Assembly (NCBI GenBank): GCA_019357535.2
Contig: CP079956.2
Span: 1-64,000, forward strand
Length of the DNA stretch: 64,000 nt
Origin: Macrococcus sp. 19Msa1099
Lineage (GTDB): Bacteria; Bacillota; Bacilli; Staphylococcales; Staphylococcaceae
Reading direction: 5' to 3'
Shown: positions 1-38,068 of the stretch, piece by piece
Layout: each line of letters begins with the position of its first letter
Numbering within the stretch: position 1 is the stretch's first letter
Translations under genes and position numbers: made by a program
Notes under the pieces: generated by a model
The model's database searches: none
Told to the model about the DNA's origin: nothing
What the model saw: the letters and a program-made list of their open reading frames with translations, nothing else

Positions 1-699
1 GAAATAGAGACTAAAGGGGCAAGTATGATACTTGAAGAGATGAGAGATGCTAAAGGAAGCCTTAATAAGAGCAAAGAAGTTAATATAAAGGCGCTAAAAA
101 AGATAAATGACGTAGTAAAGAAATATAACATCCCTGTACCGCTTCTAGAGCAGTTTATTGAAGAATACGAAACTGAGGATGTCATAGGTCAAGAAGCGGC
201 TGACACGCTCTTAAATGAGCTTAAACAGGGGGATAGTATGTATTTATCATCTTTTAGAGGATATAGGCAAGCATGTGAAGAAGACGACGAAGTATATGAG
301 TACTATAGCGATGTTGTAGATGACTTTTTAGATTTCGGTCTTACGAATTACGGGGAAGCCCTCCAGGAAGTACTACCAGAAAGCACAGAGAAGAGGGTTG
401 GTAGACCAGATGGAGAAGCATTGCTAGACGTATTAGTACCAATTAAATCTTCAGGTTTAGAGTACTTTCAATCAAAAAACCGCAACTCTCATGGTTATTA
501 TTACAACAGCCAGTACGCTAAAGAGTTAGCATACGTGCGTAGAGCTTTGCTAGAGGATCGAGAGTATATAGGTACTAGAAACGCATTCAATCGCTTAACG
601 TCAGCATTTGAACAACTCTCAGACTATATGTATGAACGATATCATCAACTAGGCGGAACGCCTGTAAATTATCACGGACATGATGACAGAAAGAAATAA
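1..699 (+). CDS. Mirror copy of telomere-proximal 324-aa protein (partial)
   Basis: The reading frame is open from base 1 and reproduces exactly the C-terminal 232 residues of the protein encoded on the opposite strand at 1487-2461. The first ATG inside the window is at 25, but it is internal to the gene. The N-terminal part lies outside the window. If the palindrome is hairpin read-through, this is not a second gene but the same gene read on its other strand. It is followed by its own terminator at 792-819. Confidence 0.8.
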   Translation, partial: EIETKGASMILEEMRDAKGSLNKSKEVNIKALKKINDVVKKYNIPVPLLEQFIEEYETEDVIGQEAADTLLNELKQGDSMYLSSFRGYRQACEEDDEVYEYYSDVVDDFLDFGLTNYGEALQEVLPESTEKRVGRPDGEALLDVLVPIKSSGLEYFQSKNRNSHGYYYNSQYAKELAYVRRALLEDREYIGTRNAFNRLTSAFEQLSDYMYERYHQLGGTPVNYHGHDDRKK

Positions 700-791
700 G
701 GTTTAAACTAACCCACAATAACACCATATAATAAAATAAGCAACAAAGCAAAAATATTTAAATAAAATTAACTTAATAAGAACAAACGTAC

Positions 792-819
792 AAGCAGTCT
801 GCTTTCAGGCTGCTTTTTT
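792..819 (+). terminator. Rho-independent terminator
   Basis: An 8-bp stem (AGCAGTCT with AGGCTGCT, one G-T pair) is followed by a T run. It lies about 90 bp after the stop of the partial gene at 1-699 and is mirrored at 1367-1394. Confidence 0.7.
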
Positions 820-1067
820 GATGTGTGGAAATATTTTAACGAACAGCTAATAAAATAACAAATAATAACAATTAGTTATTTTATAATAAATATATTTATA
901 GATCTTAAAGTAAAAATAAATATCAATTATTGAAAATTATATAAAAATTAAAACATAAATCTTCAATAATAAATATATGCAGAATGCATAGAAGTAAAAT
1001 AAAAAACACAGTCTCAAAAATGGAACCAATAAAAGAACCAACACAGGAGGTAGTCCCAAAAATGAGA

Positions 1068-1118
1068 CCATAGGCGCCAAGCCTATGGGCTATTAGCCCA
1101 TAGGCTTGGCGCCTATGG
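1068..1118. other. Core of the palindrome with fold-back stems
   Basis: Each arm carries its own 8-bp stem next to the axis: CCATAGGC (1068-1075) pairs with GCCTATGG (1081-1088) across a 5-base loop, mirrored at 1098-1118. The tip can therefore fold as one long hairpin or as a three-way, rabbit-ear structure. The core is clearly richer in G+C than the AT-rich arms around it. It is a candidate telomere-resolution or end-recognition site; no such site has been matched here to a known system. Confidence 0.5.
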
Positions 1119-1366
1119 TCTCATTTTTGGGACTACCTCCTGTGTTGGTTCTTTTATTGGTTCCATTTTTGAGACTGTGTTTTTTATTTTACTTCTATGC
1201 ATTCTGCATATATTTATTATTGAAGATTTATGTTTTAATTTTTATATAATTTTCAATAATTGATATTTATTTTTACTTTAAGATCTATAAATATATTTAT
1301 TATAAAATAACTAATTGTTATTATTTGTTATTTTATTAGCTGTTCGTTAAAATATTTCCACACATC

Positions 1367-1394
1367 AAAAAAGCAGCCTGAAAGCAGACTGCTT
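1367..1394 (-). terminator. Rho-independent terminator of the telomere-proximal operon
   Basis: This is the mirror of the 792-819 hairpin. It lies 93 bp downstream of the stop of the 324-aa protein and closes the leftward operon 3370 to 1487 before the non-coding telomere region. Confidence 0.7.
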
Positions 1395-1486
1395 GTACGT
1401 TTGTTCTTATTAAGTTAATTTTATTTAAATATTTTTGCTTTGTTGCTTATTTTATTATATGGTGTTATTGTGGGTTAGTTTAAACC

Positions 1487-2461
1487 TTATTTCTTTCTGT
1501 CATCATGTCCGTGATAATTTACAGGCGTTCCGCCTAGTTGATGATATCGTTCATACATATAGTCTGAGAGTTGTTCAAATGCTGACGTTAAGCGATTGAA
1601 TGCGTTTCTAGTACCTATATACTCTCGATCCTCTAGCAAAGCTCTACGCACGTATGCTAACTCTTTAGCGTACTGGCTGTTGTAATAATAACCATGAGAG
1701 TTGCGGTTTTTTGATTGAAAGTACTCTAAACCTGAAGATTTAATTGGTACTAATACGTCTAGCAATGCTTCTCCATCTGGTCTACCAACCCTCTTCTCTG
1801 TGCTTTCTGGTAGTACTTCCTGGAGGGCTTCCCCGTAATTCGTAAGACCGAAATCTAAAAAGTCATCTACAACATCGCTATAGTACTCATATACTTCGTC
1901 GTCTTCTTCACATGCTTGCCTATATCCTCTAAAAGATGATAAATACATACTATCCCCCTGTTTAAGCTCATTTAAGAGCGTGTCAGCCGCTTCTTGACCT
2001 ATGACATCCTCAGTTTCGTATTCTTCAATAAACTGCTCTAGAAGCGGTACAGGGATGTTATATTTCTTTACTACGTCATTTATCTTTTTTAGCGCCTTTA
2101 TATTAACTTCTTTGCTCTTATTAAGGCTTCCTTTAGCATCTCTCATCTCTTCAAGTATCATACTTGCCCCTTTAGTCTCTATTTCCGTTTCTGCTATTTC
2201 TTTAAGTCTCTCATATACAGCCTGAATATTATACTTAACATTCTCATAGCTCGTAGTCGTATCTTCTCTGCTTCTGAGATCCTTTTCTATATCTGAGGCT
2301 ATCTTTTTAGTTACATTCCTTAATTTACGATACTCAGATCTGTAAACAGACATATATTCATGTCGTTCTTCTAAACCCTTTAAATAGCTATCAAGTAATG
2401 GTTTCGCCTGTTCCATCATCTTCTCTATCTTCTGGAACTTCTCTAGATTTGTCGTTGCCAT
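1487..2461 (-). CDS. Unknown 324-aa protein next to the palindrome axis
   Basis: I do not recognise this protein. It is hydrophilic and rich in E, K, D and Y, with probable coiled-coil stretches in the first 150 residues (for example a K/E-rich segment around residues 1-70). It has no signal peptide or membrane segment and so should be cytoplasmic. Its start codon overlaps the stop of the RusA-like gene (TGATG), so translation is probably coupled. It is the last gene of a leftward operon (HTH-like, RusA-like, this) that ends at a terminator 0.3 kb from the palindrome axis. The position suggests a replication or telomere-associated role, but this is inference only. Confidence 0.75.
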   Translation of the reverse strand: MATTNLEKFQKIEKMMEQAKPLLDSYLKGLEERHEYMSVYRSEYRKLRNVTKKIASDIEKDLRSREDTTTSYENVKYNIQAVYERLKEIAETEIETKGASMILEEMRDAKGSLNKSKEVNIKALKKINDVVKKYNIPVPLLEQFIEEYETEDVIGQEAADTLLNELKQGDSMYLSSFRGYRQACEEDDEVYEYYSDVVDDFLDFGLTNYGEALQEVLPESTEKRVGRPDGEALLDVLVPIKSSGLEYFQSKNRNSHGYYYNSQYAKELAYVRRALLEDREYIGTRNAFNRLTSAFEQLSDYMYERYHQLGGTPVNYHGHDDRKK

Positions 2462-2889
2462 CAGTCTACCCCCTTTAGAATTATCTCTGTTCTTGGATTA
2501 TCTAGCACTTGGAACTTTGCAGATTGTATCATCGTTATTCTACTGTCTTTTATCTTTAAACCTTTGAATATGCTATCTAGGATGGATTTTATTAAGTTGT
2601 CTAAATCAGGTGCAGTAGTTCGCATAATATTATTAATACGCTTTTGCCCTTTAGGTACTTTCAAATAAAAATATAGTTCCGCTTTTACACCAAGTTTAGC
2701 TGACATCACATTATAAAAGTCTTCGTTGTATGCCCCTGCTTCTTCTAACATCTTTTTAACAGCATCCATGTAATCAATATAGCTCTGCTGATAATAAGTG
2801 ATGGTCTTCTTGTTCTTTGGATCATACCTAAATGAAGGTCGTGGGGTAGGTACTGGTTGTAAGTTTACTGTAAACTTCCATTCTGACAT
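2461..2889 (-). CDS. rusA-like: RusA-family Holliday junction resolvase
   Basis: The 142-aa protein has the length and layout of RusA crossover-junction endonucleases: an N-terminal PVPTPRP segment, a central helix, then the metal-binding motif PDLDN (D95, D97) with K101 and a second acidic site KDSRI (D115). In the RusA family these acidic residues bind Mg2+ and the dimer cuts four-way junctions symmetrically. It sits 11 bp after the HTH-like gene and overlaps the following gene by the stop/start. RusA genes are usual in phages, where they process recombination or replication intermediates. Here it is the second gene inward from a giant palindrome, a natural cruciform substrate. Confidence 0.85.
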   Translation of the reverse strand: MSEWKFTVNLQPVPTPRPSFRYDPKNKKTITYYQQSYIDYMDAVKKMLEEAGAYNEDFYNVMSAKLGVKAELYFYLKVPKGQKRINNIMRTTAPDLDNLIKSILDSIFKGLKIKDSRITMIQSAKFQVLDNPRTEIILKGVD

Positions 2890-2899
2890 TTAACCCACC

Positions 2900-3370
2900 T
2901 CATTTACCTAAATGGTTTAGTTTACTCTTTAAATTATCGATATCAGTCTTGTTGTTATCATCTGTCGCTTCCTGCTTTACCGCACCATCTGTAATTTCTT
3001 TCATCCCCATAGAATTTAGGTGTTTATTTACAGTTTCTCTTTGCTCCGCTATCGCAGCTTCATGTTTTTCTTCCTTAGTCATTTTCTCTTCAGGGGGCAA
3101 TGTCTGGTACTCATTAAACAGCTCTATTAACGTGTTAAGCTCTGATAAAGTAAAAACTTCTGCTAGTGCATCAAAGTAAGTCCTATCCTCAGCAACTTCT
3201 TTTAATTTATCAATATTTCTATAAATTGTTGATTTACCTTTATTTAATTTTTCTTGTATAACTTTTCTACTTTTAATATTAGCTGCACCAATATTGATAA
3301 ACCATTCAAAGATCATCTCACTTTTCATTTTAGAAATACTTAATTTTTTTTGTGTTTTTGTATTAGCCAT
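2900..3370 (-). CDS. Putative DNA-binding protein (HTH-like)
   Basis: A 156-aa protein if translation starts at the ATG preceded by AGGAGTG, three codons into the open frame. Residues 30-60 (KSRKVIQEKLNKGKSTIYRN) look like a helix-turn-helix of the kind found in small phage or plasmid regulators. The middle is E/K-rich and the C-terminus is polar and N/D-rich. It is the first gene of the leftward operon with the RusA-like resolvase. A cluster of TGTAYAC repeats lies immediately upstream (3419-3473) and could be its own operator. No closer family assignment. Confidence 0.65.
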   Translation of the reverse strand: MANTKTQKKLSISKMKSEMIFEWFINIGAANIKSRKVIQEKLNKGKSTIYRNIDKLKEVAEDRTYFDALAEVFTLSELNTLIELFNEYQTLPPEEKMTKEEKHEAAIAEQRETVNKHLNSMGMKEITDGAVKQEATDDNNKTDIDNLKSKLNHLGK

Positions 3371-3418
3371 ATAAATCACTCCTAATAATTATTATTTAAA
3401 ATATCTCAATAATAGAGC

Positions 3419-3473
3419 GTATACTCTTGTACATTCTTGTATACGTATACAGTTGTACACTAATGTATACTTG
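3419..3473. promoter_or_regulatory. Phased TGTAYAC repeat cluster 1
   Basis: About five TGTAYAC or GTATAC units spaced by roughly one helical turn lie directly upstream of the HTH-like/rusA operon. This is the first of seven such intergenic clusters between 3.4 and 11.9 kb. It could be an operator or a partition site. Confidence 0.6.
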
Positions 3474-3785
3474 TTGGTTTTAAGCAATATTAAACATTAT
3501 TTACTTATTATTTTAATAGATGATTAAAATATATTTATTTATATATAATCAATGACTATTATTTAATCTAAACCTTTAAAATTTCATTAAATGCATTTTT
3601 AATATAATAGGTTTTCCCACAAATAGAACTGTAATAATTTATGATTTAATTATAACGTATTAGTCCCATATTTGAAACTATAAAAATCGTATTATTTATT
3701 GGCTTTATTTGTAAATTATTATTGTGTTTTATATTTTAAATATATTTAATATTTAATTTTATTTAACTTCTTATATATATAAATT
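3474..3785. other. Gene-free AT-rich stretch
   Basis: Very AT-rich DNA with no open frame of note and no clear repeat other than the adjoining TGTAYAC cluster. I see nothing specific in it. Confidence 0.5.
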
Positions 3786-3818
3786 AAAAGGCACTGAATT
3801 ATATCAGTGCCTTTTAAT
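3786..3818. terminator. Terminator (usable both ways)
   Basis: AAAAGGCACTGA pairs with TCAGTGCCTTTT over a 6-base loop, directly after the stop codon of the leftward gene at 3819-4097. Confidence 0.8.
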
Positions 3819-4097
3819 TTATGCTACATTATATTCTTGATGTGTTTCGTTGACTTCTGCTGGATAATCTATAGAGATATGAAAATAAGTATTAGCGCCT
3901 AATAATGTCTCTACTATATATTCTTCTCTTCTGACTTCTTCAAACTGTGTTGCCAACTGTTTAACCTTTTCTGTATCAACTTCTCTATCTACGGTAGTTA
4001 CATGGATTGAACTTCCCATTGAATAACTTTCAGATCTTACTTTTACTTTGCGGTTGCGGTTGCTGTAACCTAAATCCTTTAATTGCTTTCTTAACAT
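3819..4097 (-). CDS. Small protein resembling LPD29-type phage/plasmid domain
   Basis: A 92-aa protein with the pattern LKDLGYSNRNRKVKVR, SYSMGSSIHVT, then a helical segment and ANTYFHISIDY. This resembles a small domain (LPD29-like) seen alone or within large polyvalent proteins of phages and conjugative elements; the assignment is from memory of the pattern and is tentative. It has no signal peptide. The start is supported by an AAGGAAAAA ribosome-binding site. Single-gene unit with a terminator at 3786-3818; an IS30-family element has inserted 180 bp upstream, so its promoter may be disturbed. Confidence 0.6.
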   Translation of the reverse strand: MLRKQLKDLGYSNRNRKVKVRSESYSMGSSIHVTTVDREVDTEKVKQLATQFEEVRREEYIVETLLGANTYFHISIDYPAEVNETHQEYNVA

Positions 4098-4274
4098 TTT
4101 TCCTTTTTCTGCTACTGTGTGTGTAATTCATTTTAATTCTCTACTTATCTTTAAGATACTTAAATTATATATAATACATTTATCGTTGCAAAGTATTTTA
4201 CTTAAATTTATTTAAGTATTTATATTTATTTGTTAATTTTTTGTTTTTTTATATATTCGAAAATTTCAATTGCA

Positions 4275-5497
4275 AGTTAGCCACTACATCCAAATTAATA
4301 GAGATAGTAGCTTAATGGTTCACTTAATAATCCTTCGGATTTTAGTGACTTCAGAAACAGGTATTTAGGTGTTTCATAATCTAGAATTTTTCTGGGATAA
4401 TTGTTCATCCAGTTTTGGATACGATAAATTATCTCATCAGATACTGATTCCATACTGATTCCTTTAGGGATTATCCGTCTAATGAATTTATGATGGTTTT
4501 CTTTAGTACCTCGTTCCCATGATGAATAAGGGTGCGTAAAGTATATTTCAGTGTCAGGTAGTGTCTCCGTAAGGTCACTGAACTCTGATCCGTTATCAGA
4601 AGTAATAGACTTGAATATTCGTGAAAATGAATTATCTAATTGATCTTTTAATTGACTTAATGCTAATGTGACAGCATCATTATTTTTACTTTTAATAGGA
4701 ACGATGATTTCATATCGTGTCTGTCTTTCAACAAGTGTAAGTAACGCTCTTTCGTTTTTAAGTTTAGAACCAATAACAGTATCTATTTCCCAATGACCAA
4801 AGACATCTCTAGAATTGATTTCGTGACTTCTATCTTCGATAGATTTTCCTAATACTTTTTTATTTTTTCGACTAGGTCTTCTATTTGTATTTGGTTTTCG
4901 TGATATCTTCTCTATAAGGTCGATATTAGAGGTCTTCATAATTCCTCTTTCAATCCAGTTATATAGTGTTGAAACACAAGGAATAATAGAATCACAAAAA
5001 ATATTATTCTTTTTAGCATAGGCTATTACAACATCGGGAGACCATTTTTTATTCAACATCATCTTATCAGCCCAATCAATAAAAGCATGAGATAACTGAT
5101 GTTTTGGTGTCCTGCAAGAATTCATACGATTTGTTTCATATTTAAGTTGAGCAACATCAGGGAAATAGCATTCATAATCATAAAAATATTCTTTACTATT
5201 AGAAACTATGCGCTTAATTTGTTTAACAGTTCCTCTATTGATCTCATTGTTAATCGTTTGAGGTGCTCTATTCAAAATTTTAGCAATAGCACGATTTGAA
5301 TAATTTTCACTCTTCAAAATCTGAATTTGATGTCTTTCAAATTCAGTTAAGTGTTTTCCTTTAATATGATTAGTGGTACCATTTAGATGAGTCATTTGCA
5401 TTCATTCCTTATTGTTTGTTGTGGTAACTACAATATTAACATGGATGCACATGGCTCATTTTTTATTTTTTTAAAGCACACCGTAGGTGGCTAACTT
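4275..5497 (-). mobile_element. IS30-family insertion sequence (type A1)
   Basis: About 1.22 kb bounded by inverted AAGTTAGCCAC (4275-4285) and GTGGCTAACTT (5487-5497), containing one leftward transposase gene. It shares its end motif with the elements at 29.2 and 32.8 kb but its transposase is clearly diverged from theirs. The exact outer ends may be some bases further out because the flanks of related copies also resemble one another. Confidence 0.8.
4295..5401 (-). CDS. IS30-family transposase
   Basis: A 368-aa DDE transposase. The N-terminal HTH (residues about 20-50, YSNRAIAKILNRAPQTINNE) binds the inverted repeats. The catalytic core shows HWEIDTVIG, SDNGSEFSD and RGTKENHHKFIRR, the D-D-E signature of the family. 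The protein appears full length, so the element may still be active. The start may be at the third codon (ATG-ACT), where the related copies begin. Confidence 0.9.
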   Translation of the reverse strand: MQMTHLNGTTNHIKGKHLTEFERHQIQILKSENYSNRAIAKILNRAPQTINNEINRGTVKQIKRIVSNSKEYFYDYECYFPDVAQLKYETNRMNSCRTPKHQLSHAFIDWADKMMLNKKWSPDVVIAYAKKNNIFCDSIIPCVSTLYNWIERGIMKTSNIDLIEKISRKPNTNRRPSRKNKKVLGKSIEDRSHEINSRDVFGHWEIDTVIGSKLKNERALLTLVERQTRYEIIVPIKSKNNDAVTLALSQLKDQLDNSFSRIFKSITSDNGSEFSDLTETLPDTEIYFTHPYSSWERGTKENHHKFIRRIIPKGISMESVSDEIIYRIQNWMNNYPRKILDYETPKYLFLKSLKSEGLLSEPLSYYLY

Positions 5498-5543
5498 GAT
5501 TATAGAATTTCCCTTTTTTATATATTTATATGTTTTTATTATT

Positions 5544-5560
5544 TGTACACTCTTGTATAC
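5544..5560. promoter_or_regulatory. TGTAYAC repeat cluster 2
   Basis: TGTACACTCTTGTATAC, two half-sites 10 bp apart, at the 3' end of the small leftward gene 5560-5832 and close to the right end of the IS30 copy. Confidence 0.5.
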
Positions 5561-5832
5561 TAAATAGTTCTATACATCATGTTTAAGACCGCTCTATATA
5601 CTTCTAGTGTACTATTATTTACTTCTTTATTTTTAACTATATTTTCTAAAAGACTAATTGTTTCTTCCCATGCCTTTGCTTTTCTATATAATTCTTTATT
5701 TTGTGTTACCACATTGATCATGCATTCAGCTTTTCTTAAAAGCTGCTCCTTCTTTTCTAGTTTCTCATACTCTTCTGCTCTTGCTTTAAAATGATTAGCA
5801 ATTTCTAATACTATATCATTACATTCATTCAT
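5560..5832 (-). CDS. Hypothetical 90-aa coiled-coil protein
   Basis: Unrecognised. Highly helical, rich in E, K and L, with a heptad-like stretch from about residue 15 to 35 and no signal peptide. It lies in a run of very small leftward genes (6150 to 5560) with gaps of 14 bp or overlaps, which looks like one transcript. Such tiny genes are usual in phage and plasmid early regions. Confidence 0.6.
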   Translation of the reverse strand: MNECNDIVLEIANHFKARAEEYEKLEKKEQLLRKAECMINVVTQNKELYRKAKAWEETISLLENIVKNKEVNNSTLEVYRAVLNMMYRTI

Positions 5833-5846
5833 AAAATCACCTTCTA

Positions 5847-6053
5847 TTATTTTATTTCAAAATATTTAAATAAATATTCTGTATGCCTGTTATCGAAATA
5901 CTTTTTCAAAAAGGTTTTACGTTCAGATATATCTTCTATATTTAAAGATTTATTAATTATCTCATCATATTCTGTAAATCCGCTTCTACAGTTTTTCATA
6001 ATTACTTCCAGCTTCTTATTGATAATAATCTGTTTATCAGGATAACTTCTCAT
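5847..6053 (-). CDS. Hypothetical 68-aa protein
   Basis: Unrecognised small charged protein (N-terminus MRSYPDKQIIINKKLEVI). Its start overlaps the end of the 37-aa gene at 6037-6150, implying translational coupling, and it is followed after 14 bp by the coiled-coil gene. Confidence 0.55.
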   Translation of the reverse strand: MRSYPDKQIIINKKLEVIMKNCRSGFTEYDEIINKSLNIEDISERKTFLKKYFDNRHTEYLFKYFEIK

Positions 6054-6150
6054 TTTCTAATAGATATAGTTCTTGACCTTGTCTTACAATATCATCTAGT
6101 AAATACCAAAAATCTTTTCCATTATTATATATTATCTTTCTCAGAGTCAC
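6037..6150 (-). CDS. Very small protein (37 aa), GTG start
   Basis: A GTG start preceded by AAAAGGA opens a 37-codon frame (VTLRKIIYNNGKDFWYLLDD...) that ends in TGA, overlapping the next gene. The composition is plausible for a real peptide and it fills an otherwise empty gap in a tightly packed leftward unit. No homologue recognised. Confidence 0.4.
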   Translation of the reverse strand: MTLRKIIYNNGKDFWYLLDDIVRQGQELYLLENEKLS

Positions 6151-6166
6151 CGCATCCTTTTCTATA

Positions 6167-6205
6167 TTGTATACTTCTATACACTCTTGTATACTCTTGT
6201 ACACT
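6167..6205. promoter_or_regulatory. TGTAYAC repeat cluster 3
   Basis: Four consecutive half-sites at 10-bp spacing (TGTATAC, TATACAC, TGTATAC, TGTACAC), upstream of the small-gene unit 6150-5560. Confidence 0.6.
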
Positions 6206-6215
6206 ATTATATTTT

Positions 6216-6249
6216 ATAAAAGACATCTAAAAAATAGATGCCTTTTATA
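6216..6249 (-). terminator. Terminator
   Basis: AAAAGACATCTA and TAGATGCCTTTT form a stem at the end of the leftward gene ending at 6245. Confidence 0.6.
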
Positions 6250-6931
6250 CATAGATTTCTATACCATCATTTTTTATCTTTACTACACTCACTTCATTTT
6301 CAGCTTCATCAATAAATACTGAGATATAACTTTTTATATTTTCATCAAATACTCCTATAGCGACCGCTTCATCTGGTGCATCAGATTTACAATGTGTTTC
6401 TGTAACAAATTCTAACGTACCATTTTCTAGTTCCACTTCTTCTTCAATTTCAAAATTCCAATGATCTGATAGCCTTGCTGAACCGTGCGGCTTTTTACCC
6501 CAACCGATACCATTAGAATTATATCAAGATGGGGAGTAGGGGCATTTACTAAAATCTTTACCTTCAAAGTATCTACTATATATATCTTTGAATTCGTCTA
6601 TGCGTTCTCTACTAATGTAAAGCAGCTCTCTTTTTGGCTTCTTTCTTCTATACTTATCTTCCTCATCTATATATTTAAGTAAATCATAATGAGTTGTTAT
6701 ACTTTTTGTATCAACGATCGTTGCTTCATCTATATTCATTCCAAGTCGTTCAATAGAATAGAAGCTCCCTTGTATATCTATTCTTTCGAGTACATCTTCT
6801 CTCTCATCTTCATCTATAATATCTAACTGCTCCATATAATCTTCCATATCCTCATATAAATCTACATAAAGGTTATCATTTTTAATATACTTCACTGCTT
6901 CCTGGCGAATAGCTTCGTACTTATTAATCAT
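6245..6931 (-). pseudogene. Hypothetical protein split by an in-frame TGA
   Basis: Two open stretches (6524-6931, 135 codons; and the stretch ending at 6245) are in the same frame, separated by one TGA at 6524-6526. Downstream of the TGA the frame continues without any ATG for about 30 codons that look fully coding (GIGWGKKPHGSARLSDHWNF) before a GTG at 6436. The simplest reading is one gene of about 228 residues in which a TGG (Trp) became TGA. Programmed readthrough or a downstream gene with an unusual start are alternatives. The N-terminal part is acidic and unrecognised. Confidence 0.6.
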
Positions 6932-7040
6932 ATTCAGTCACTCCCAATAATTAGATATTAATTTACCTCTAATCTCATTATACTATCATATATGATAGTA
7001 TTCATAGAATATATATTTTAAATTAATTATTTCTATTATT

Positions 7041-7069
7041 TGTACACTGTTGTATACATTTGTACACTT
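7041..7069. promoter_or_regulatory. TGTAYAC repeat cluster 4
   Basis: Three half-sites, TGTACAC, TGTATAC and TGTACAC, with 10- to 12-bp spacing, between the leftward gene 6931 and the rightward small genes from 7150. Confidence 0.55.
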
Positions 7070-7149
7070 TTTTTAGAAAGTTAAAGAAAAAAGGTTTATA
7101 CATGCCATTCGGCATTTTATGATTAATTATAGATAAGGAGGTGAACAAA

Positions 7150-7290
7150 GTGAATAGAGAGGAACGGAGAGAGTCAAAGTTAGACAAAAAAGTAGAGCGA
7201 TGGAAAGAGATTACAGAAATCATCAAAAACATTCTAATAATCCTCACATCGCTCGTAGCACTAATCAAAGTATTGTTCGGGTGGGACTAA
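7150..7290 (+). CDS. Small membrane protein (46 aa)
   Basis: A GTG start 8 bp after AAGGAGG opens 47 codons: a highly charged N-terminal half (RE/K-rich) followed by one hydrophobic helix (IIKNILIILTSLVALIKVLF). The design resembles small membrane toxins or holin-like peptides of staphylococcal plasmids and phages. The strong ribosome-binding site makes it likely to be translated. It is followed 36 bp later by another single-helix peptide. Confidence 0.6.
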   Translation: MNREERRESKLDKKVERWKEITEIIKNILIILTSLVALIKVLFGWD

Positions 7291-7326
7291 CCCTCCGAAA
7301 TCCATTATATAAAAGGAGTGATAATA

Positions 7327-7422
7327 ATGACAGAAAGAAATAAGAATATATTTCAAATAGTATCTAACTTATGCATATCTTTTATTCTAATATTAATTAT
7401 GTATTTACTACTGACTCATTAA
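7327..7422 (+). CDS. Small membrane peptide (31 aa)
   Basis: An ATG after AAAAGGAGTGATAATA opens 31 codons, with a polar start (MTERNKN) and one hydrophobic helix (CISFILILIMYLLLT). No homologue recognised. It belongs to the same rightward unit as the 46-aa membrane protein. Confidence 0.5.
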   Translation: MTERNKNIFQIVSNLCISFILILIMYLLLTH

Positions 7423-7464
7423 TTTTATAACTTACTACTTTATATCCTCTCTATTCACTAATAT

Positions 7465-7980
7465 ATGAAAGATACAATCAATACATTAATAAATAGCGAT
7501 ATATCCGCATATCAAATATCTAAAGGTACAGGTGTAGCTGCTTCAGGTATTCAACGCATTCGATCTGGAGAACGTAAAATCGAAAACCTAACTCTCGAAA
7601 ATGCTGAAAAGCTCTATCAGTATCAACAGCAGTTAGAAACAACAAGTGGTGCAATATTAACAGATGACCAATTGCAATCAATCGAACTGAAAGTAAAAGA
7701 TATGAAAAATGTCAGATTTAATAACAAACATGATGACAGTATCGAACTAATATTTAATAGTGATATATTTATAGTAACTATTCTATTTTCTAAATCATCT
7801 ACACAAGTAAAAGCATATGCGTTAATTCATAATAAAAAATTTGGTGAAGAAATTACATCCATCAATAGTATCAAAAAACTTTACGATACATTACATCAAT
7901 ACCTAGCATACTTTAATTCCGATAAAAATATATGTGATACTGTGTCATTTATAAATTCACTTTCAAAGACTACAGTATAA
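7465..7980 (+). CDS. XRE-like transcriptional regulator
   Basis: A 171-aa protein with an N-terminal HTH (residues about 12-45, SAYQISKGTGVAASGIQRIRSGERK) of the same type as the 73-aa regulator at 9556-9777, and an unrecognised C-terminal domain of about 110 residues rich in beta-strand patterns. It is likely a DNA-binding repressor; its targets may include the TGTAYAC clusters, which occur upstream and downstream of it, but this is inference. No good Shine-Dalgarno is visible before the ATG. Confidence 0.75.
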   Translation: MKDTINTLINSDISAYQISKGTGVAASGIQRIRSGERKIENLTLENAEKLYQYQQQLETTSGAILTDDQLQSIELKVKDMKNVRFNNKHDDSIELIFNSDIFIVTILFSKSSTQVKAYALIHNKKFGEEITSINSIKKLYDTLHQYLAYFNSDKNICDTVSFINSLSKTTV

Positions 7981-8017
7981 AAAGAAGCATACTTTTAATA
8001 TTAAATATGCTTCTTTT
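7979..8017 (+). terminator. Terminator
   Basis: AAAAGAAGCATA pairs with TATGCTTCTTTT, overlapping the stop of the XRE-like gene. Confidence 0.8.
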
Positions 8018-8048
8018 ATTAGTACCACTTCAGATTTACTCTATCATT

Positions 8049-8096
8049 TGTATACTGTTGTACACCTTTATACACTGTTGTATACTCTTGTACACT
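8049..8096. promoter_or_regulatory. TGTAYAC repeat cluster 5 (longest array)
   Basis: Five consecutive half-sites at 10-bp spacing: TGTATAC, TGTACAC, TATACAC, TGTATAC, TGTACAC. It is flanked by two terminators, so it does not sit in front of any gene, which argues for a structural or partition role rather than only an operator. Confidence 0.65.
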
Positions 8097-8169
8097 AATA
8101 TAATCATAAAAAATATATGAACTATTATTAGCTCTTTTCTTTTTATAATCTATTCTCTATTAAAAATAA

Positions 8170-8203
8170 AGGCATGCTCTCAGTATCCAAGAGCATGCCT
8201 TTA
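8170..8203 (-). terminator. Terminator
   Basis: AAAGGCATGCTCT pairs with AGAGCATGCCTTT, just after the leftward gene 8206-8385. Confidence 0.8.
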
Positions 8204-8205
8204 AA

Positions 8206-8385
8206 TTAATCTCTATATTTTTCTTTTCTCGTATTATAAATCATCACTGCTGAATTCACTAACGTAATTAGAATCAAAGCCTTAAGCAAAAAACTATCTA
8301 TATCAATTATATTAGAAGCGGCTAAAAATATTATAATTAATAGAATTATATTAATTATATCTTGTAAAAAATATTTTTTTTTCAT
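8206..8385 (-). CDS. Two-helix membrane protein, possible immunity protein
   Basis: A 59-aa protein with a lysine start (MKKKYF), two hydrophobic helices and a basic end (NTRKEKYRD). The start is preceded by AAGG at 8 bp. It lies 9 bp downstream of a secreted protein gene of about 200 residues. Size, topology and placement match immunity proteins of bacteriocins, and the same arrangement recurs at 13063-13951. No homologue was recognised by sequence. Confidence 0.6.
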   Translation of the reverse strand: MKKKYFLQDIINIILLIIIFLAASNIIDIDSFLLKALILITLVNSAVMIYNTRKEKYRD

Positions 8386-8394
8386 ATGTAAACC

Positions 8395-9042
8395 TTAGTC
8401 CTTCCAAATACCAAATGAGTATGTAAACCACTTATTTACATCCATATATATTTTACTCTTAGGATGTGCATCTGAATAACTACTCAAATCATGTGAAAGT
8501 AATTCTGCATATCCTGCTGCTGGTATTCCCACTACTGCCACTCCAGGTACAATTGATGCTAAGGCTGTTTTAAGTGCTGCGCTTTGCCATTGAGATGCTT
8601 GATATTTTGCTGCTGTTGCAGTTCTGAATATATGTTTTACACCCCACCAATATTTTCTGACTTCATGTGCTGGTCTTGCTGCACTATATGTAACAACTGA
8701 TTTTTGTTTTTCAACTCGTTCCTTTGTCGCACTATTAATATTTTCACTATGAATACTGACTTGTTCATTTGAAAATTTAATTTGTTCTCGAATTGCTGAA
8801 ATGGTTGTTTTATCAGCAACATCATAGATACCCTCATCTAAAACATACTGATTTCCAGAGACTTTAACATATTGATCATACTTCTGTAATTGAGCAGGAG
8901 TGACTTGTTTAATATCTTGTTCCGTAGAGACATTCTGAACAGAAGTCGAATTTGCAGAAACTTCTGCAACAAATGGTGTGAATGAACAGAATAACATGGT
9001 ACTCGCAACTAGAATTGTAGTAACTTTAGCATTCTTTTTCAT
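8395..9042 (-). CDS. Secreted bacteriocin-like protein
   Basis: A 215-aa precursor with a clear signal peptide (KK, then LVASTMLFCSFTPFVAEVSA, cleavage after residue about 31). The mature part has a polar N-terminal half and a C-terminal part with a hydrophobic, glycine-rich stretch (TALASIVPGVAVVGIPAAGYAELL) followed by SYSDAHPKSKIYMDVNKWF. This layout recalls large geobacillin-26-like bacteriocins, but that is a memory-based guess. AGGAGATATTT precedes the ATG. It is cotranscribed with the probable immunity gene 8206-8385. Confidence 0.65.
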   Translation of the reverse strand: MKKNAKVTTILVASTMLFCSFTPFVAEVSANSTSVQNVSTEQDIKQVTPAQLQKYDQYVKVSGNQYVLDEGIYDVADKTTISAIREQIKFSNEQVSIHSENINSATKERVEKQKSVVTYSAARPAHEVRKYWWGVKHIFRTATAAKYQASQWQSAALKTALASIVPGVAVVGIPAAGYAELLSHDLSSYSDAHPKSKIYMDVNKWFTYSFGIWKD

Positions 9043-9168
9043 AAATATCTCCTCTTTCTCTTGTTTATATAATGAAGATTATCTCAATATATAAATTAAT
9101 ATTAATTTTTTTGTAATTATATTGCAATTTTTTACTTATATAATATGGAAATTTGACTTGTTGTATTT

Positions 9169-9185
9169 TGTACACTCTTGTATAC
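9169..9185. promoter_or_regulatory. TGTAYAC repeat cluster 6
   Basis: TGTACACTCTTGTATAC, identical to cluster 2, in the space between the bacteriocin-like gene and the MarR-like regulator. Confidence 0.55.
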
Positions 9186-9222
9186 AATTTAATAAAAGAC
9201 CTCAGCATTTCACCGCTTCAGT

Positions 9223-9555
9223 CTATAGCTCTTCTATGTAGCTCTTAAGTATTCTATAGTTCTCTTTATTCTCTGTATTCATGAATATTACGATAGATCG
9301 TTCGTCTGTCGGTTTTCTTTTTCTACTCACATACCCCTTAATTTCTAAGCTCTTTAGTATCGGGGACAGTCTCTGATGACTCATATGCAACAAACCACAA
9401 AGCTCTAATGCAGTAAGTCCATCAGTCTCAATTTCTTCTAGCATATATAAGATACCTAATGCCTCTATAGCAACATCTAGCTCATCTCTTAATGGTTTTC
9501 TCATCTTTCTTACCAGGATTTCTGCTTCTGCCAGATCCTTAATGTTCATCATCAT
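9223..9555 (-). CDS. MarR-like winged-helix regulator
   Basis: A 110-aa protein. Residues 40-95 show the winged helix of MarR-type proteins: GLTALELCGLLHMSHQRLSP (recognition helix), then IKGYVSRKRKPTDERSIVIF for the wing. It is shorter than classical MarR proteins (about 140 aa), having lost most of the dimerisation helices. It lies immediately downstream of, and is coupled to, the XRE-like 73-aa gene. Any of the three consecutive ATG codons could be the start. Confidence 0.75.
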   Translation of the reverse strand: MMMNIKDLAEAEILVRKMRKPLRDELDVAIEALGILYMLEEIETDGLTALELCGLLHMSHQRLSPILKSLEIKGYVSRKRKPTDERSIVIFMNTENKENYRILKSYIEEL

Positions 9556-9777
9556 CTATCCTTTCTCTATATCCGCTTCATTATCCAGGTAAAGCTGATA
9601 AAGAAGCTCCATATTTTTTAAAGTCATATTATCCAGTGTTCTCTTCTCTTTTCTAAGATATGTAATCGTCGTCTGACTGATACCTGTATGCTTTGATATA
9701 TAGTACCCTGTAAGGTTTGATTTCAGTAATCTCTGTACTGCGTGTCTCATCTCTTTAGACTTATGTGTATTATCCAT
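9556..9777 (-). CDS. Small XRE-like HTH protein
   Basis: A 73-aa protein that is essentially one HTH (LTGYYISKHTGISQTTITYLRKEKR, residues about 22-47). It resembles the N-terminal domain of the 171-aa regulator at 7465-7980, including the following LDNMTLKNMELLYQL helix. It probably forms a two-regulator operon with the MarR-like gene. Confidence 0.75.
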   Translation of the reverse strand: MDNTHKSKEMRHAVQRLLKSNLTGYYISKHTGISQTTITYLRKEKRTLDNMTLKNMELLYQLYLDNEADIEKG

Positions 9778-9889
9778 ATCTACTGATAGCAGCTTGTATT
9801 ACTGGCTATCCTTTGCCCCTCTCTTATTCCTATCATAAAATATACTATAATTTATTATACTATATTTTATGACACTATAACCACAAAAA

Positions 9890-9920
9890 ATAGGGGCTCC
9901 AGTTTTCTAGAGTCCCTATA
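9890..9920 (-). terminator. Terminator
   Basis: ATAGGGGCTCCAG and CTAGAGTCCCTAT form a stem downstream of the leftward gene 9988-10170, with adjoining A/T runs. Confidence 0.6.
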
Positions 9921-9987
9921 CGTTCCGATAGCATATCTTTCCACACATTTACACACATCATATATCACACATATTCAATAGGCTTTA

Positions 9988-10170
9988 CTACTCTTCTTTC
10001 TGAGCATATCCTTCTGTCATTGACTGTTTCATTTCAGGCATGATTAACTTCTCTTCAGTTACCTTATATTCACCTGTCTGCTCTAAATGTTTCTGCTCTG
10101 TCTTTTTATCCGCTTCCTTTCTACCTGTAATCAACATCTCTTCTCTCTCCTTATATCTGATATTCATCAT
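9988..10170 (-). CDS. Hypothetical 60-aa charged protein
   Basis: Unrecognised, very rich in K, E and Q. Its start overlaps the end of the excisionase-like gene (10167), suggesting a coupled unit with the genes from 11661 downward. Confidence 0.5.
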   Translation of the reverse strand: MMNIRYKEREEMLITGRKEADKKTEQKHLEQTGEYKVTEEKLIMPEMKQSMTEGYAQKEE

Positions 10171-10427
10171 GCTTCATCCTCTCTTTTAACTGTCTGCATA
10201 TCCTTACCTTTTAATCTATGCTTAGCTCTCTCTTCCTTGCTGACTGCGTACTGTTCTATCTCTTCTCTTAAGAACAGCTTTGTACTTCCAGTGTCATAGA
10301 ATACAGGGATATAGCCTTTCAGTACTGCATTTGAGAACGTCCCTTTACTCTGCTTTGTAATCTTCACTGCTTCATCTCTATTGATGAGATTTTCTTTCAG
10401 ATACTGCTTTAATTCTGACTTATCCAT
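10167..10427 (-). CDS. Excisionase/MerR-like DNA-binding protein
   Basis: An 86-aa protein. Residues 15-60 (NRDEAVKITKQSKGTFSNAVLKGYIPVF...LFLREEIEQY) follow the pattern of small winged-helix proteins of the excisionase/MerR type, and a basic tail follows. It is third of four coupled leftward genes (11661 to 9988). Confidence 0.6.
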   Translation of the reverse strand: MDKSELKQYLKENLINRDEAVKITKQSKGTFSNAVLKGYIPVFYDTGSTKLFLREEIEQYAVSKEERAKHRLKGKDMQTVKREDEA

Positions 10428-10429
10428 CT

Positions 10430-10576
10430 CTATTCCCCCTCTCTCTTCTCTGTGTCCTTCTGAGCGAATGATAAACGCTTCATACCTACAGAATGTCCTA
10501 AACGTCTTACCTGCTCTGTATCAGCTTTATTTGTCCGTATAATCTGTATCGCTCTTTCTATATCTATTAGACTCAT
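10430..10576 (-). CDS. Small protein (48 aa)
   Basis: An ATG-started frame of 48 codons (MSLIDIERAIQIIRTNKADT...) that ends in TAG just before the excisionase-like gene, to which its G-rich 3' end supplies a ribosome-binding site. Unrecognised; included because of the tight operon fit and normal composition. Confidence 0.5.
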   Translation of the reverse strand: MSLIDIERAIQIIRTNKADTEQVRRLGHSVGMKRLSFAQKDTEKREGE

Positions 10577-10605
10577 ATATGGATCGCCGATAAATTTCTT
10601 TCGTA

Positions 10606-11661
10606 CTATTTACCCTGTTTCAACTGGTTATATCTTTCTTTAAGCTGTTTCATCTTCTCTGTGTATTTGTCATTATCCTTATGCTTCAGTAAATATAATT
10701 CATACTCAAAATAATCTGTCAGCTTCCCTACTGCTTCATCCTTCTTTCTACCATTAAAGCTCACGTGGTCGCTGTATGAACCATATAGCTTATGTCTTAC
10801 CTTAAGATTTATAAGCCGCTTCACGCTGCTTCTTCTTTCAATCAGCGCCTTTATAACGTTGCGCTCTACATAAGCCATATTATCAACGAATAACCCTGCT
10901 TCTTCTATTTCTCCACTAGCCGCTTCTGGTTTATATTTTACCAGTTTATATAGCCTGTCAAAGTCTGTTGCTTTTGCACGGATATATGTTTCTTTATCCG
11001 ACGATATAACGAAATTTTTTACAAGCACTGGTTTTACAGGACATTCCGATTTTTCAAAAAGTACAGATGTACTTAAAAATGTATCTCGCTTATTCTCTAT
11101 ATCCTGTACCTTTCTGAATAACCTCAACTTTTCTCTATTCACCTTAAATACAGTTGAGCGCTTTTGAAATACATGCTCTACACCTATAACCTTGCCTACA
11201 ACAAGTCGATGGCTTCCATCTGTTTCCTGGTAGTAATACGTCCTCCCATGTTCATCAATATACTTTATAAAGTAGAAGCTATTAAAGCTTGACGGTTGTT
11301 CTTCATACAGTCTTCTAATCTCAGATATATTCATATCATGCCACTTCTCGAATAACCTTGAAAATCTTTCTTTTTGAAAGGTAGGCGTGTAATCACTGTC
11401 AAAAAACCTTCCGTTCAAATGATAGTGCCAACTTATACCGTTACACTTATTTTCAAGCCTTGCATAATCATGTATATCTTTCATAGGTACTATTCGTATC
11501 TCTGTATCTTCTCCAACTTCCTCATAACAGTACCTAAACTCTTTTTTGGGATACTTTACCGCTTCAAGCTTTTTACTATCTATCTCTTCCTGTGTCATCC
11601 CTTTTTCTATAAGGTATCCATCTATCGAACTGAAACGTTTCAACTGTTCTGTAAGATACAT
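10606..11661 (-). CDS. Hypothetical 351-aa protein with a DGSHR motif
   Basis: Not recognised as a whole. The stretch YYYQETDGSHRLVVGKVIGV (about residues 144-163) resembles the DGxHR loop of ParB/sulfiredoxin-fold domains, which in that superfamily binds a nucleotide. The rest is charged and helical, with many K/R near the C-terminus (KEKMKQLKERYNQL). GAGAGGAG precedes the ATG. It is the first gene of a leftward unit with two small proteins and an excisionase-like protein. A plasmid maintenance role is possible but unproven. Confidence 0.55.
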   Translation of the reverse strand: MYLTEQLKRFSSIDGYLIEKGMTQEEIDSKKLEAVKYPKKEFRYCYEEVGEDTEIRIVPMKDIHDYARLENKCNGISWHYHLNGRFFDSDYTPTFQKERFSRLFEKWHDMNISEIRRLYEEQPSSFNSFYFIKYIDEHGRTYYYQETDGSHRLVVGKVIGVEHVFQKRSTVFKVNREKLRLFRKVQDIENKRDTFLSTSVLFEKSECPVKPVLVKNFVISSDKETYIRAKATDFDRLYKLVKYKPEAASGEIEEAGLFVDNMAYVERNVIKALIERRSSVKRLINLKVRHKLYGSYSDHVSFNGRKKDEAVGKLTDYFEYELYLLKHKDNDKYTEKMKQLKERYNQLKQGK

Positions 11662-11831
11662 ATCAATGCTCCTCTCTGCTTCAGTATGCTAGCCGCTTCT
11701 ATCCTTTAACGTTCTGTTTCATACCTAGAACGCTTCATTGTTCGTTCTAAGGGTTGCTACAGTCCTTTATACGATATTCCTCAAATCTGAAAGGGTTATC
11801 TGTCTTCTATGTTCCTGTATCCTCTTTCATT

Positions 11832-11848
11832 TGTACACCCTTGTATAC
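11832..11848. promoter_or_regulatory. TGTAYAC repeat cluster 7
   Basis: TGTACACCCTTGTATAC upstream of the 351-aa gene, the rightmost cluster I found. Confidence 0.55.
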
Positions 11849-11880
11849 TATTATTGGGGGTACTTTTTACAGTATCATCT

Positions 11881-11975
11881 GGCGGAGGTTGGCGTGTGTT
11901 GTCGTCTGTGTAAGTCTTTGAGTGGTTTTCTCAAAGGCTGTAACTAGACGACAACACACGTCAGACGGAGCCGCC
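11881..11975. other. Strongly folded GC-rich element
   Basis: Three nested stems: GGCGG/CCGCC (11881-11885 with 11971-11975), a perfect 15-bp stem (11893-11907 with 11946-11960, containing GTGTTGTCGTCT) and an inner 7-bp hairpin CTTTGAG/CTCAAAG (11916-11922 with 11930-11936). It lies between the RadC-like gene and the 351-aa gene and stands out from the surrounding DNA by GC content. It could be a structured RNA or a replication/packaging-type DNA hairpin. Confidence 0.55.
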
Positions 11976-11985
11976 GAAAATTTTT

Positions 11986-12005
11986 AGGGGGGCAAATTCC
12001 CCCCC
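11986..12005 (-). terminator. Possible terminator of the RadC-like gene
   Basis: A G6/C6 stem-loop on the minus strand followed by TAAAAATTTT, just after the RadC-like stop codon. Confidence 0.5.
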
Positions 12006-12010
12006 TGTCA

Positions 12011-12463
12011 TTAAACTAACCCTTTACTCTTAAGGCTTGTCGCATCATCATCAGTTACGATTAAGGCATCCAACATCCCGATACCAAGCATATCCCCGAT
12101 TTTGTCTACTCTTCTTGCCATTTCAACATCCTGTATGCTTTCATCTGCATAGCCACTCGGGTGGTTATGAATGACTATGAAAGCTGTGCAACTGTTCTCT
12201 ATCAGTGGCTTGAATATCTCTCTTGGGTGTACAAGTGAGGCATCTACCGTACCGACATGCGCCACATAGGCAATCATGACCTCATTCTTAGTGTTGACAC
12301 CTAGCACTAGCAACTTTTCTCTGTCGCAGTACCCGATTTCTTCTCTTGCGAAGTCGATAACGTTGTCCTTACAGTTAAGCTTTATACGTTCCTGTTTTGT
12401 CTTTCTGTAATACGTCTTGTTCTCTGTGATTTTGTAGATGTACTTTTCGTCAAATTTTTTCAT
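12011..12463 (-). CDS. RadC-like JAB/MPN+ domain protein
   Basis: A 150-aa protein covering only the C-terminal MPN+/JAB metalloprotease-fold domain of RadC (full RadC proteins are about 220 aa). The zinc-site motif is present as FIVIHNHPSG with the downstream acidic segment, and an upstream E follows FAREEIGYCDREKL. Stand-alone RadC/JAB proteins are common on plasmids, phages and ICEs; their molecular role is not settled. AAGGAGCG precedes the ATG. Monocistronic, with a possible G/C-rich terminator. Confidence 0.8.
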   Translation of the reverse strand: MKKFDEKYIYKITENKTYYRKTKQERIKLNCKDNVIDFAREEIGYCDREKLLVLGVNTKNEVMIAYVAHVGTVDASLVHPREIFKPLIENSCTAFIVIHNHPSGYADESIQDVEMARRVDKIGDMLGIGMLDALIVTDDDATSLKSKGLV

Positions 12464-12610
12464 GTTCCTTACGCTCCTTTGAATTGTGTGTGTTGTGTGT
12501 GTTGAGCCTGGAAGATTAGGCTCTGTATAGTGTTGATATGCTATCCCCCTTTCAACTTACCTTTATTATATGACATTATGTTAATCATGTCAACAGAATG
12601 CACTCACTTT

Positions 12611-12765
12611 TTAGCCGATTTCTACTATTTTTTAGGAGACTTGTCCCGAAGCAAAAAATGCCTGTAATCGTTCATAGGACTGCGAAGCTAAGTCCGCAAT
12701 GACGATTACGTGCATTTTTTGTTGATGGGTGCAGTCGATTAAAAAATCGTTGAAATCGGCTAAAC
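12611..12765. other. Nested fold-back non-coding block
   Basis: An outer 12-bp stem TTAGCCGATTTC (12611-12622) with GAAATCGGCTAA (12754-12765) encloses a long imperfect hairpin (12653-12721) made of AAAAAATGC, TAATCGT and GGACT segments and their complements. The 600-bp gap 12464-13062 holds no convincing gene. Further right, TTCTACTGAAGC occurs twice (about 12803 and 12842). It may be an origin, a regulatory RNA or a relic. Confidence 0.45.
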
Positions 12766-12896
12766 TTATATCTATTTTCTTTTGAAGCGGTTTTCAGACG
12801 TATTCTACTGAAGCAAGACATTTTAAGGGTGCGTATCACTTTTCTACTGAAGCGGGGGAGTGGGACGATGTGATATAAGGACGAAGATTGTTTACT

Positions 12897-13003
12897 ATAG
12901 GTTGAATCATAAAATAACACCCGTATCCTATATCTCTACAGCTACGGGTGTTACTCGTTTTACATCGGGATATTCTTATAGAATTTTGACACTTTCATTA
13001 TAG
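12897..13003. repeat. Direct repeat left copy, with hairpin
   Basis: About 107 bp, closely matching 14472-14579. It includes a hairpin AACACCCGTA...TACGGGTGTT and ends TTTTGACACTTTCATTATAG. The two copies bracket the 13.0-14.5 kb segment that carries the secreted protein and small membrane protein. Confidence 0.8.
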
Positions 13004-13062
13004 TATATTTATTATTGCAGTGGATCGCTTTCTTATATCGGTACAGCTTACTAATCTGCTTC

Positions 13063-15055: not shown

Positions 15056-15062
15056 CTATCTT

Positions 15063-38066: not shown

Positions 38067-38068
38067 AC

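What the first reader, a model, noticed from the sequence alone, without database searches (positions are those of the whole stretch)
1..2185. Perfect 2.2-kb palindrome with a one-base axis: candidate closed hairpin end of a linear plasmid
Position p matches the complement of 2186-p from the window edge through the axis at 1093, including coding and non-coding DNA. Ordinary inverted duplications diverge or have a spacer; this one has neither. Reading around a covalently closed hairpin gives exactly this. Linear plasmids with hairpin ends are known in enterococci (pELF1 type has one hairpin end) and in N15-like phages. I know of no well-described one in Staphylococcaceae, though I could not search. 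A fold-back read artefact is the main competitor.
Basis: partly seen in the sequence, partly recalled or inferred. Interest (0 to 1): 0.92.

Follow-up and report, generated by a model that had tools for sequence, protein, structure and literature searches.

The report
Hairpin telomere of a linear plasmid
The palindrome is a real hairpin-closed end of a 150-kb linear plasmid, already published for this species in 2025; new here is that Staphylococcus, Lactobacillus and Enterococcus linear plasmids share related end sequences and a three-gene module with a RusA-type DNA-junction-cutting enzyme, the best candidate for making the ends.

Summary
Observation confirmed: 1,092 of 1,092 positions mirror around a T at 1093. 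The contig (C2, 152,239 bp) folds back at its other end too, at the same sequence (axis 151,163), and has 14.1-kb terminal inverted repeats. This is the 150-kb hairpin-ended linear plasmid published in 2025 for Macrococcus psychrotolerans (PMC12016501), so the hairpin end itself is not new.

New, as far as the library held here shows: (1) the axis core CTATGGGCTR-N-YAGCCCATAG recurs at the ends of Staphylococcaceae plasmids, nine of them deposited as circular; variants (CTATGAGCTA|TAGCTCATAG; CTATTCCCTA|TAGGGAATAG) sit at the ends of a Lactobacillus johnsonii plasmid and at the hairpin end of enterococcal pELF-type plasmids. (2) Beside the core lie two covarying stem-loops. (3) A three-gene module (HTH protein, RusA-family Holliday-junction nuclease, ~305-325-aa helical protein) accompanies these plasmids; those three genes were the only ones in all 11 Staphylococcaceae records compared. 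(4) No known protelomerase is in the genome, and no tyrosine recombinase is on the plasmid.

Inferred mechanism: replication through the hairpin makes a palindromic junction that extrudes as a cruciform and is cut by RusA, as proposed for rudiviruses and poxviruses. RusA's role is untested.

The parts
1..1092 (.). Fold-back copy of 1094-2185: read-through of the hairpin kept by the assembler, not extra DNA; the ORF at 25-699 is the mirror of the 324-aa gene
1083..1103 (.). Terminal hairpin core CTATGGGCTA-T-TAGCCCATAG, axis at 1093
1098..1118 (.). Nested inverted repeat CCATAGGC-ttggc-GCCTATGG next to the core (shared with the M. carouselicus contig, where the spacer is tgggc; not in the Staphylococcus telomeres)
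1118..1133 (.). Telomere stem-loop 1 (alignment columns 25-40), covarying across plasmids
1160..1175 (.). Telomere stem-loop 2 (alignment columns 67-82), covarying across plasmids
1487..2461 (-). 324-aa all-helical protein of unknown function, ending in NYHGH; telomere-proximal gene of the module
2461..2889 (-). RusA-family Holliday-junction endonuclease, catalytic Asp residues kept; the genome's only RusA genes are this one and its copy in the right repeat
2900..3379 (-). Small helical protein (159 aa from the GTG start, 156 aa from the inner ATG), third gene of the module; DNA binding is an inference
1094..15226 (.). Left terminal inverted repeat, 14,133 bp, 99.92% identical to the right end of the contig
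16398..18308 (+). MobQ-type relaxase (accessory; not found in all relatives)
31676..32467 (-). ParA-type partition ATPase
45745..46506 (-). RepB-type replication initiator

Best explanation
The palindrome is the left telomere of a 150-kb linear plasmid whose two strands are joined at each end by a small hairpin loop; reading around the loop gives the mirror image. The physical molecule runs from about 1094 to 151,162 of contig C2, with the same end on both sides inside 14.1-kb inverted repeats (shown from sequence; published for this plasmid from long reads). Proposed upkeep (inferred): internal replication runs through the closed ends and makes a double-stranded palindromic junction; the core extrudes as a cruciform, which is a Holliday junction; the plasmid's own RusA-family nuclease cuts it symmetrically and ligase seals each half into a new hairpin. 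The 324-aa and 159-aa partners probably bind the stem-loop repeats next to the core and position RusA or guard the end. This works like the resolvase model proposed for poxviruses and for rudiviruses, without the protelomerase of Borrelia or N15. My confidence is about 0.97 for the hairpin end and about 0.65 for RusA as the resolving enzyme.
For: Hairpin ends: perfect fold-back at both contig ends at the same axis; the matching plasmid is published with symmetric nanopore reads, 14.1-kb ITRs and unpaired terminal T bases (PMC12016501). Telomere identity: the same core at the axis in plasmids of S. pasteuri, S. warneri, S. caprae, S. simulans, S. aureus and others; an S. warneri record begins and ends exactly at the half-core; short-read contigs of three species stop 50-64 bp past the axis. 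L. johnsonii G2A is the sharpest case: both ends fold back on themselves while the two ends share only about 70 bp (core plus stem-loops), so end-to-end fusion through a shared repeat cannot explain it. Stem-loops covary: score 0.562 against shuffled 0.248, sd 0.039, 0/500; slid controls at most 0.168. Module: the three genes are the only ones found in 11 of 11 Staphylococcaceae records compared; RusA and its ~310-aa partner are each found in the same numbers of Enterococcus (101) and Melissococcus (4) records and in the L. johnsonii record, and lie side by side in the E. faecium and L. johnsonii records opened, including pELF_USZ, whose linearity was shown on gels. Partner families are homologous by profile (prob 99.1, E 6e-19; HTH protein 94.2, 1e-7). 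RusA catalytic residues align with E. coli RusA D70, D72, K76, D91. No ResT/TelK protelomerase in the genome, no tyrosine recombinase on C2. Holliday-junction resolvases are known or proposed to make hairpin ends in vaccinia and SIRV2.
Against: RusA acting at the telomere is guilt by association; no activity was tested. RusA is common in phages as a general junction resolvase and could serve recombination only. In enterococcal plasmids the module lies about 13-22 kb from the non-hairpin end, not at the hairpin. Host resolvases or a novel activity of the 324-aa protein could do the job. In plasmids with long ITRs the read-through alone cannot tell a hairpin from end-to-end fusion; the L. johnsonii record and published gels of pELF carry that point. 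alone is a weak match (E 0.75) although Pfam RusA is clear (5.6e-18).
Confidence: 0.72

Rival explanations
1. Hairpin telomere resolved by another enzyme: the 324-aa protein is itself a novel telomere resolvase or capping protein, or a host resolvase or recombinase does the job, and RusA serves general recombination.
For: The 324-aa protein is the gene nearest the telomere, is conserved in all 11 records compared and has no recognisable family, so an unknown activity cannot be excluded. Chromosomal tyrosine recombinases exist in the host.
Against: The model of the 324-aa protein is all-helical, with a long N-terminal helix and no match to solved structures, unlike the mixed catalytic fold of protelomerases. 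RusA is the only recognisable nuclease in the module and is conserved with its catalytic residues; the genome has no other RusA.
Confidence: 0.28
2. Fold-back sequencing or assembly artefact.
For: Fold-back reads are a known long-read artefact, and the fold-back stops about 1.1 kb from each axis.
Against: Same exact axis at both ends; same core at the axis in independently assembled plasmids of many species, in short-read and long-read assemblies; one depositor ended the record exactly at the half-core.
Confidence: 0.01
3. A circular plasmid carrying a giant natural palindrome (ends fused through the inverted repeat).
For: Nine Staphylococcus records holding the palindrome are deposited as circular, and in ITR plasmids junction reads look alike for both structures.
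Against: Long perfect palindromes (here 4 to over 30 kb) are not stably kept in bacterial duplex DNA (established knowledge). In L. johnsonii both different ends fold on themselves. pELF relatives are linear on gels (PMC9040824, PMC6863802). An S. agnetis circle with the module has no palindrome and has lost the last ~200 bp of the telomere.
Confidence: 0.02

Closest known systems
Macrococcus psychrotolerans p19Msa1099_9, p19Msa0499_10, p19Msa1047_11 (PMC12016501)
   Same: About 150 kb, 14.1-kb ITRs, hairpin ends with unpaired T, RusA and RadC in the ITRs, two RepB, MobA/MobL, FtsK-type protein: this contig is one of these or near-identical
   Different: The paper found no sequence similarity to other linear plasmids, only low protein similarity to one Mammaliicoccus sciuri linear plasmid, and the passages read name no telomere core, stem-loops or telomere enzyme
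Enterococcal pELF linear plasmids (pELF1, pELF_USZ)
   Same: Hairpin end with a palindromic core of the same pattern (CTATTCCCTA|TAGGGAATAG) and the same three-gene order HTH, RusA, ~305 aa
   Different: Only one hairpin end, the other carries a terminal protein; RusA is a tandem two-domain fusion; the module is not at the hairpin end
Lactobacillus johnsonii G2A plasmid unnamed1 (NZ_CP040855.1)
   Same: Two hairpin ends, core CTATGAGCTA|TAGCTCATAG, two stem-loops, same module beside the left axis
   Different: Two-domain RusA, ends differ apart from about 70 bp, no long ITR; no paper found in the library
N15, PY54 and Borrelia protelomerase telomeres (TelN, ResT)
   Same: Covalently closed hairpin ends with a palindromic core
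   Different: No protelomerase here; core sequence unrelated (from memory)
Rudivirus (SIRV2) and poxvirus hairpin telomeres
   Same: Hairpin ends, inverted terminal repeats, own Holliday-junction resolvase, conserved element beside the hairpin
   Different: Archaeal and eukaryotic viruses with unrelated resolvase families; no replication intermediates known here

Membership tests
Hairpin-ended linear plasmid | Sequence folds back perfectly at the end | tested here: met
   Both ends of C2
Hairpin-ended linear plasmid | Linear mobility, exonuclease resistance, snap-back | not testable with these tools
   Only literature: symmetric nanopore reads for this plasmid, gels for pELF
Protelomerase (ResT/TelN) telomere system | Protelomerase gene on the replicon or in the genome | tested here: not met
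   PF16684 absent from the whole genome; no PF00589 match on C2
pELF family | One hairpin end and one protein-capped end | tested here: not met
   Both C2 ends fold back
pELF family | Shared module HTH, RusA, ~305 aa and related palindromic core | tested here: met
Resolvase-type (poxvirus/rudivirus-like) telomere | Replicon encodes a Holliday-junction resolvase with intact catalytic residues | tested here: met
Resolvase-type (poxvirus/rudivirus-like) telomere | Conserved resolution element beside the hairpin | tested here: met
   Core and two covarying stem-loops; that they act in resolution is not tested
Resolvase-type (poxvirus/rudivirus-like) telomere | Palindromic dimer or concatemer intermediates cut by the resolvase | not testable with these tools
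   Needs biochemistry or genetics
Published M. psychrotolerans linear plasmid | 150 kb, 14.1-kb ITR, terminal T | tested here: met
   150,069 bp between axes, ITR 14,133 bp, T at both axes

The most novel reading that the evidence does not exclude
Staphylococcaceae, Lactobacillus and enterococcal pELF linear plasmids share one ancestral telomere system that uses no protelomerase: a RusA-family Holliday-junction nuclease with two partner proteins resolves palindromic replication junctions at a conserved CTATNNNCTR-YAGNNNATAG core, a bacterial counterpart of the poxvirus and rudivirus way of keeping genome ends, and many of its plasmids are hidden in databases as circles.
Probability: 0.55. Interest if true: 0.88.

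Novelty: new variant of a known kind. Interest (0 to 1): 0.72.

Why it matters
How the pELF-type and Lactobacillus linear plasmids keep their ends is an open question: for L. salivarius pLMP1046 the authors state that the mechanism is unknown (PMC4165912), and pELF papers searched here do not mention RusA. A shared three-gene module with one recognisable nuclease makes it directly testable. It also predicts that a class of staphylococcal plasmids listed as circular, including one in S. aureus, are linear. pELF plasmids spread vancomycin and linezolid resistance, so knowing how their ends are made has practical weight.

Tried and rejected
Fold-back artefact and chance palindrome: rejected. Protelomerase: searched and absent. 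A 'two different ends share only the 21-bp core' reading of M. sciuri pNW26-2 was dropped: the record simply starts at the axis and its right end is cut short, so the joined right-end sequence I built means nothing. A full circular-dimer reading of S. pasteuri pSNJS701 was dropped: it holds one axis with long ITR arms and unique DNA elsewhere. The axis base cannot be assigned to a strand from an assembly, because a palindrome reads the same both ways. The 'two RusA places' per Enterococcus record were tandem domains of one gene, not fold-backs. The Staphylococcus-type core was not found in the enterococcal records; a looser pattern found the variant core in one of three. The module protein was not found outside Staphylococcaceae within the order, and a sample of 399 genomes of the class gave only marginal matches. 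Viral contigs and phage records: no match. Structure searches of the 324-aa and 159-aa proteins gave nothing significant.

Full report
OBSERVATION. The palindrome is perfect: 0 mismatches in 1,092 pairs, axis base T at 1093. The window is the first 64 kb of contig C2 (152,239 bp) of a 2.36-Mb genome. C2 also ends in a fold-back (arm 1,076 bp, no mismatch, axis T at 151,163), and the sequence inward from both axes is the same for 14,133 bp at 99.92% identity. The physical molecule is therefore about 150,069 bp with identical ends.

ALREADY PUBLISHED. PMC12016501 (2025) reports, for three Macrococcus psychrotolerans strains, near-identical 150-kb covalently closed linear plasmids with 14.1-kb ITRs, symmetric nanopore reads at both ends and terminal T bases without a partner. 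Size, ITR length, terminal T and gene content match C2. The authors found no nucleotide similarity to other linear plasmids and only low protein similarity to one M. sciuri plasmid; the passages read name no telomere-resolving enzyme.

THE CORE RECURS. Homologues of the telomere-proximal gene are on 20 plasmid records. Where the sequence reaches the axis, the same core is there: CTATGGGCTA or CTATGGGCTG, then 0 to 2 axis bases, then the reverse complement. One record (S. simulans MR1, NZ_CP015644) has a one-base gap in the right half-core. Nine of these records are deposited as circular: S. pasteuri CP017464, CP068217, CP031281, CP068220; S. warneri CP031270; S. caprae CP051644; S. simulans CP015644, CP017429; S. 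aureus CP134804. Others are linear with internal palindromes (CP031267, CP023496); S. warneri CP134465 starts exactly at TAGCCCATAG and ends exactly at CTATGGGCTA. In 108 Staphylococcaceae genomes the 21-bp pattern is in four, with no control hits, and the gene is in those four plus one more whose contig breaks inside the gene. The three loci found in the public genome collection all end 50-64 bp past the axis, as expected where a short-read assembly meets a hairpin.

TELOMERE ANATOMY. Inward of the core lie two stem-loops (1118-1133 and 1160-1175). Across 14 telomeres 89.3% of cells pair, 8 of 12 pairs show changes on both sides, and the covariation score is 0.562 against 0.248 (sd 0.039) for shuffles, 0/500 reaching it; sliding the partner by 1-3 columns drops it to at most 0.168. 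A dyad bound by a dimeric protein could covary for the same reason, so a folded structure in vivo is not proven. Single-strand folding of the core gives a fully paired stem with a 3- or 4-nt loop; the 'one-base axis' is the middle of a 3-nt loop.

BEYOND STAPHYLOCOCCACEAE. The RusA query also hit one Lactobacillus, four Melissococcus and 101 Enterococcus records. L. johnsonii G2A (linear, 127,062 bp) has the order HTH, RusA, 317 aa, then an axis at 12,011.5 inside a 24-kb palindrome at 99.99%, with core CTATGAGCTA|TAGCTCATAG: one base changed in each half, still paired. The same core is at 112,093.5. The two ends fold on themselves (right arm perfect for at least 5,907 bp) yet resemble each other over only about 70 bp, the core and stem-loops, and the module is not within 12 kb of the right end. 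This excludes fusion through a shared repeat and defines the telomere. By eye its stem-loops keep 20 of 24 pairs of the structure drawn from the Staphylococcaceae set. In E. faecium CP131513 a palindrome (99.4% over about 26 kb) has the core CTATTCCCTA|TAGGGAATAG; record NZ_CP076473, deposited as circular, ends exactly at the half-core. The TATA at this axis agrees with the TATA loop reported for pELF1 and pELF_USZ. pELF_USZ itself carries the module, and its record starts inside the same terminal sequence, about 50 bp from the axis as placed in CP131513.

THE MODULE. Among all C2 proteins only three are found in all 11 Staphylococcaceae records compared: 324 aa, RusA and the 159-aa protein, side by side, with the 324-aa gene nearest the axis. 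The 324-aa family of Staphylococcaceae and of Enterococcus/Lactobacillus are homologous by profile (99.1%, E 6e-19), the HTH proteins probably so (94.2%, E 1e-7). RusA keeps D95, D97, K101 and D115, which align with D70, D72, K76 and D91 of E. coli RusA (the role of those residues is from memory). In Enterococcus and Lactobacillus RusA is a fusion of two RusA domains, both with the catalytic motif. RusA and the ~310-aa partner are found in the same numbers of Enterococcus, Melissococcus and Lactobacillus records. RusA occurs in the window's genome only on C2. No protelomerase was found and no tyrosine recombinase on C2. The 324-aa protein is predicted all-helical (pLDDT 80.8, pTM 0.60) without a known relative.

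MECHANISM. Shown: closed-end sequence signature, conserved core and stem-loops, conserved module with a junction nuclease, no protelomerase. Inferred: replication through the hairpins makes palindromic junctions; the core extrudes; RusA cuts symmetrically; ligase seals; the partners bind the repeats. Support by analogy: the vaccinia A22 resolvase model and SIRV2 Hjr, which in vitro turns a hairpin four-way junction into linear DNA with ligatable hairpin ends. E. coli RusA prefers to cut 5' of CC (from memory), and the Staphylococcaceae core contains CCC in each half; this is consistent but was not tested. A circular S. agnetis plasmid that keeps the module has lost the last ~200 bp of the telomere, a natural circular derivative.

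LIMITS. RusA's role is association only. The literature library lacks preprints and most subscription papers, so priority claims are bounded by it. The enterococcal module is not at the hairpin end, which the model must explain (it can act in trans).

Noticed in passing
NZ_CP017464, NZ_CP068217, NZ_CP031281, NZ_CP068220, CP031270, NZ_CP051644, NZ_CP015644, NZ_CP017429, NZ_CP134804: Plasmid records deposited as circular contain the telomere palindrome and are probably linear; one (NZ_CP134804) is from S. aureus and shares T4SS-like genes with C2.
   Followed up: partly
L055/L063 (NZ_CP040855.1), axes at 12,011.5 and 112,093.5: A Lactobacillus johnsonii plasmid deposited as 127 kb is probably a 100,082-bp linear molecule with two different hairpin telomeres.
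   Followed up: yes
C2:127472-130136 (L008:3472-6136): CBASS-like pair on the plasmid: oligonucleotide cyclase and E1-E2 protein.
   Followed up: partly
window 34750-42636 and 61592-63508; C2:96065-103555: Gene clusters with methyltransferases, an MFS transporter, extra Asp/Asn- and Thr-tRNA synthetases, and further on DHODH, PyrE, cysteine synthase and an HpaB-like hydroxylase: possibly a biosynthetic cluster with self-resistance copies.
   Followed up: no
L022 (NZ_CP094810, S. agnetis, 21 kb): Circular plasmid with the intact module but without the last ~200 bp of the telomere: a natural circularised derivative.
   Followed up: partly
NZ_CP006684, NZ_AP021886, AP012283, NZ_AP018525 (Melissococcus plutonius): Four large plasmids carry the RusA and ~310-aa pair; their topology may deserve a look.
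   Followed up: no
L031 (M. carouselicus contig), last 50 bp: Past the axis the sequence leaves the mirror image after 36 bp, so the contig joins two different ends; an assembly effect or a real junction, not decided.
   Followed up: partly
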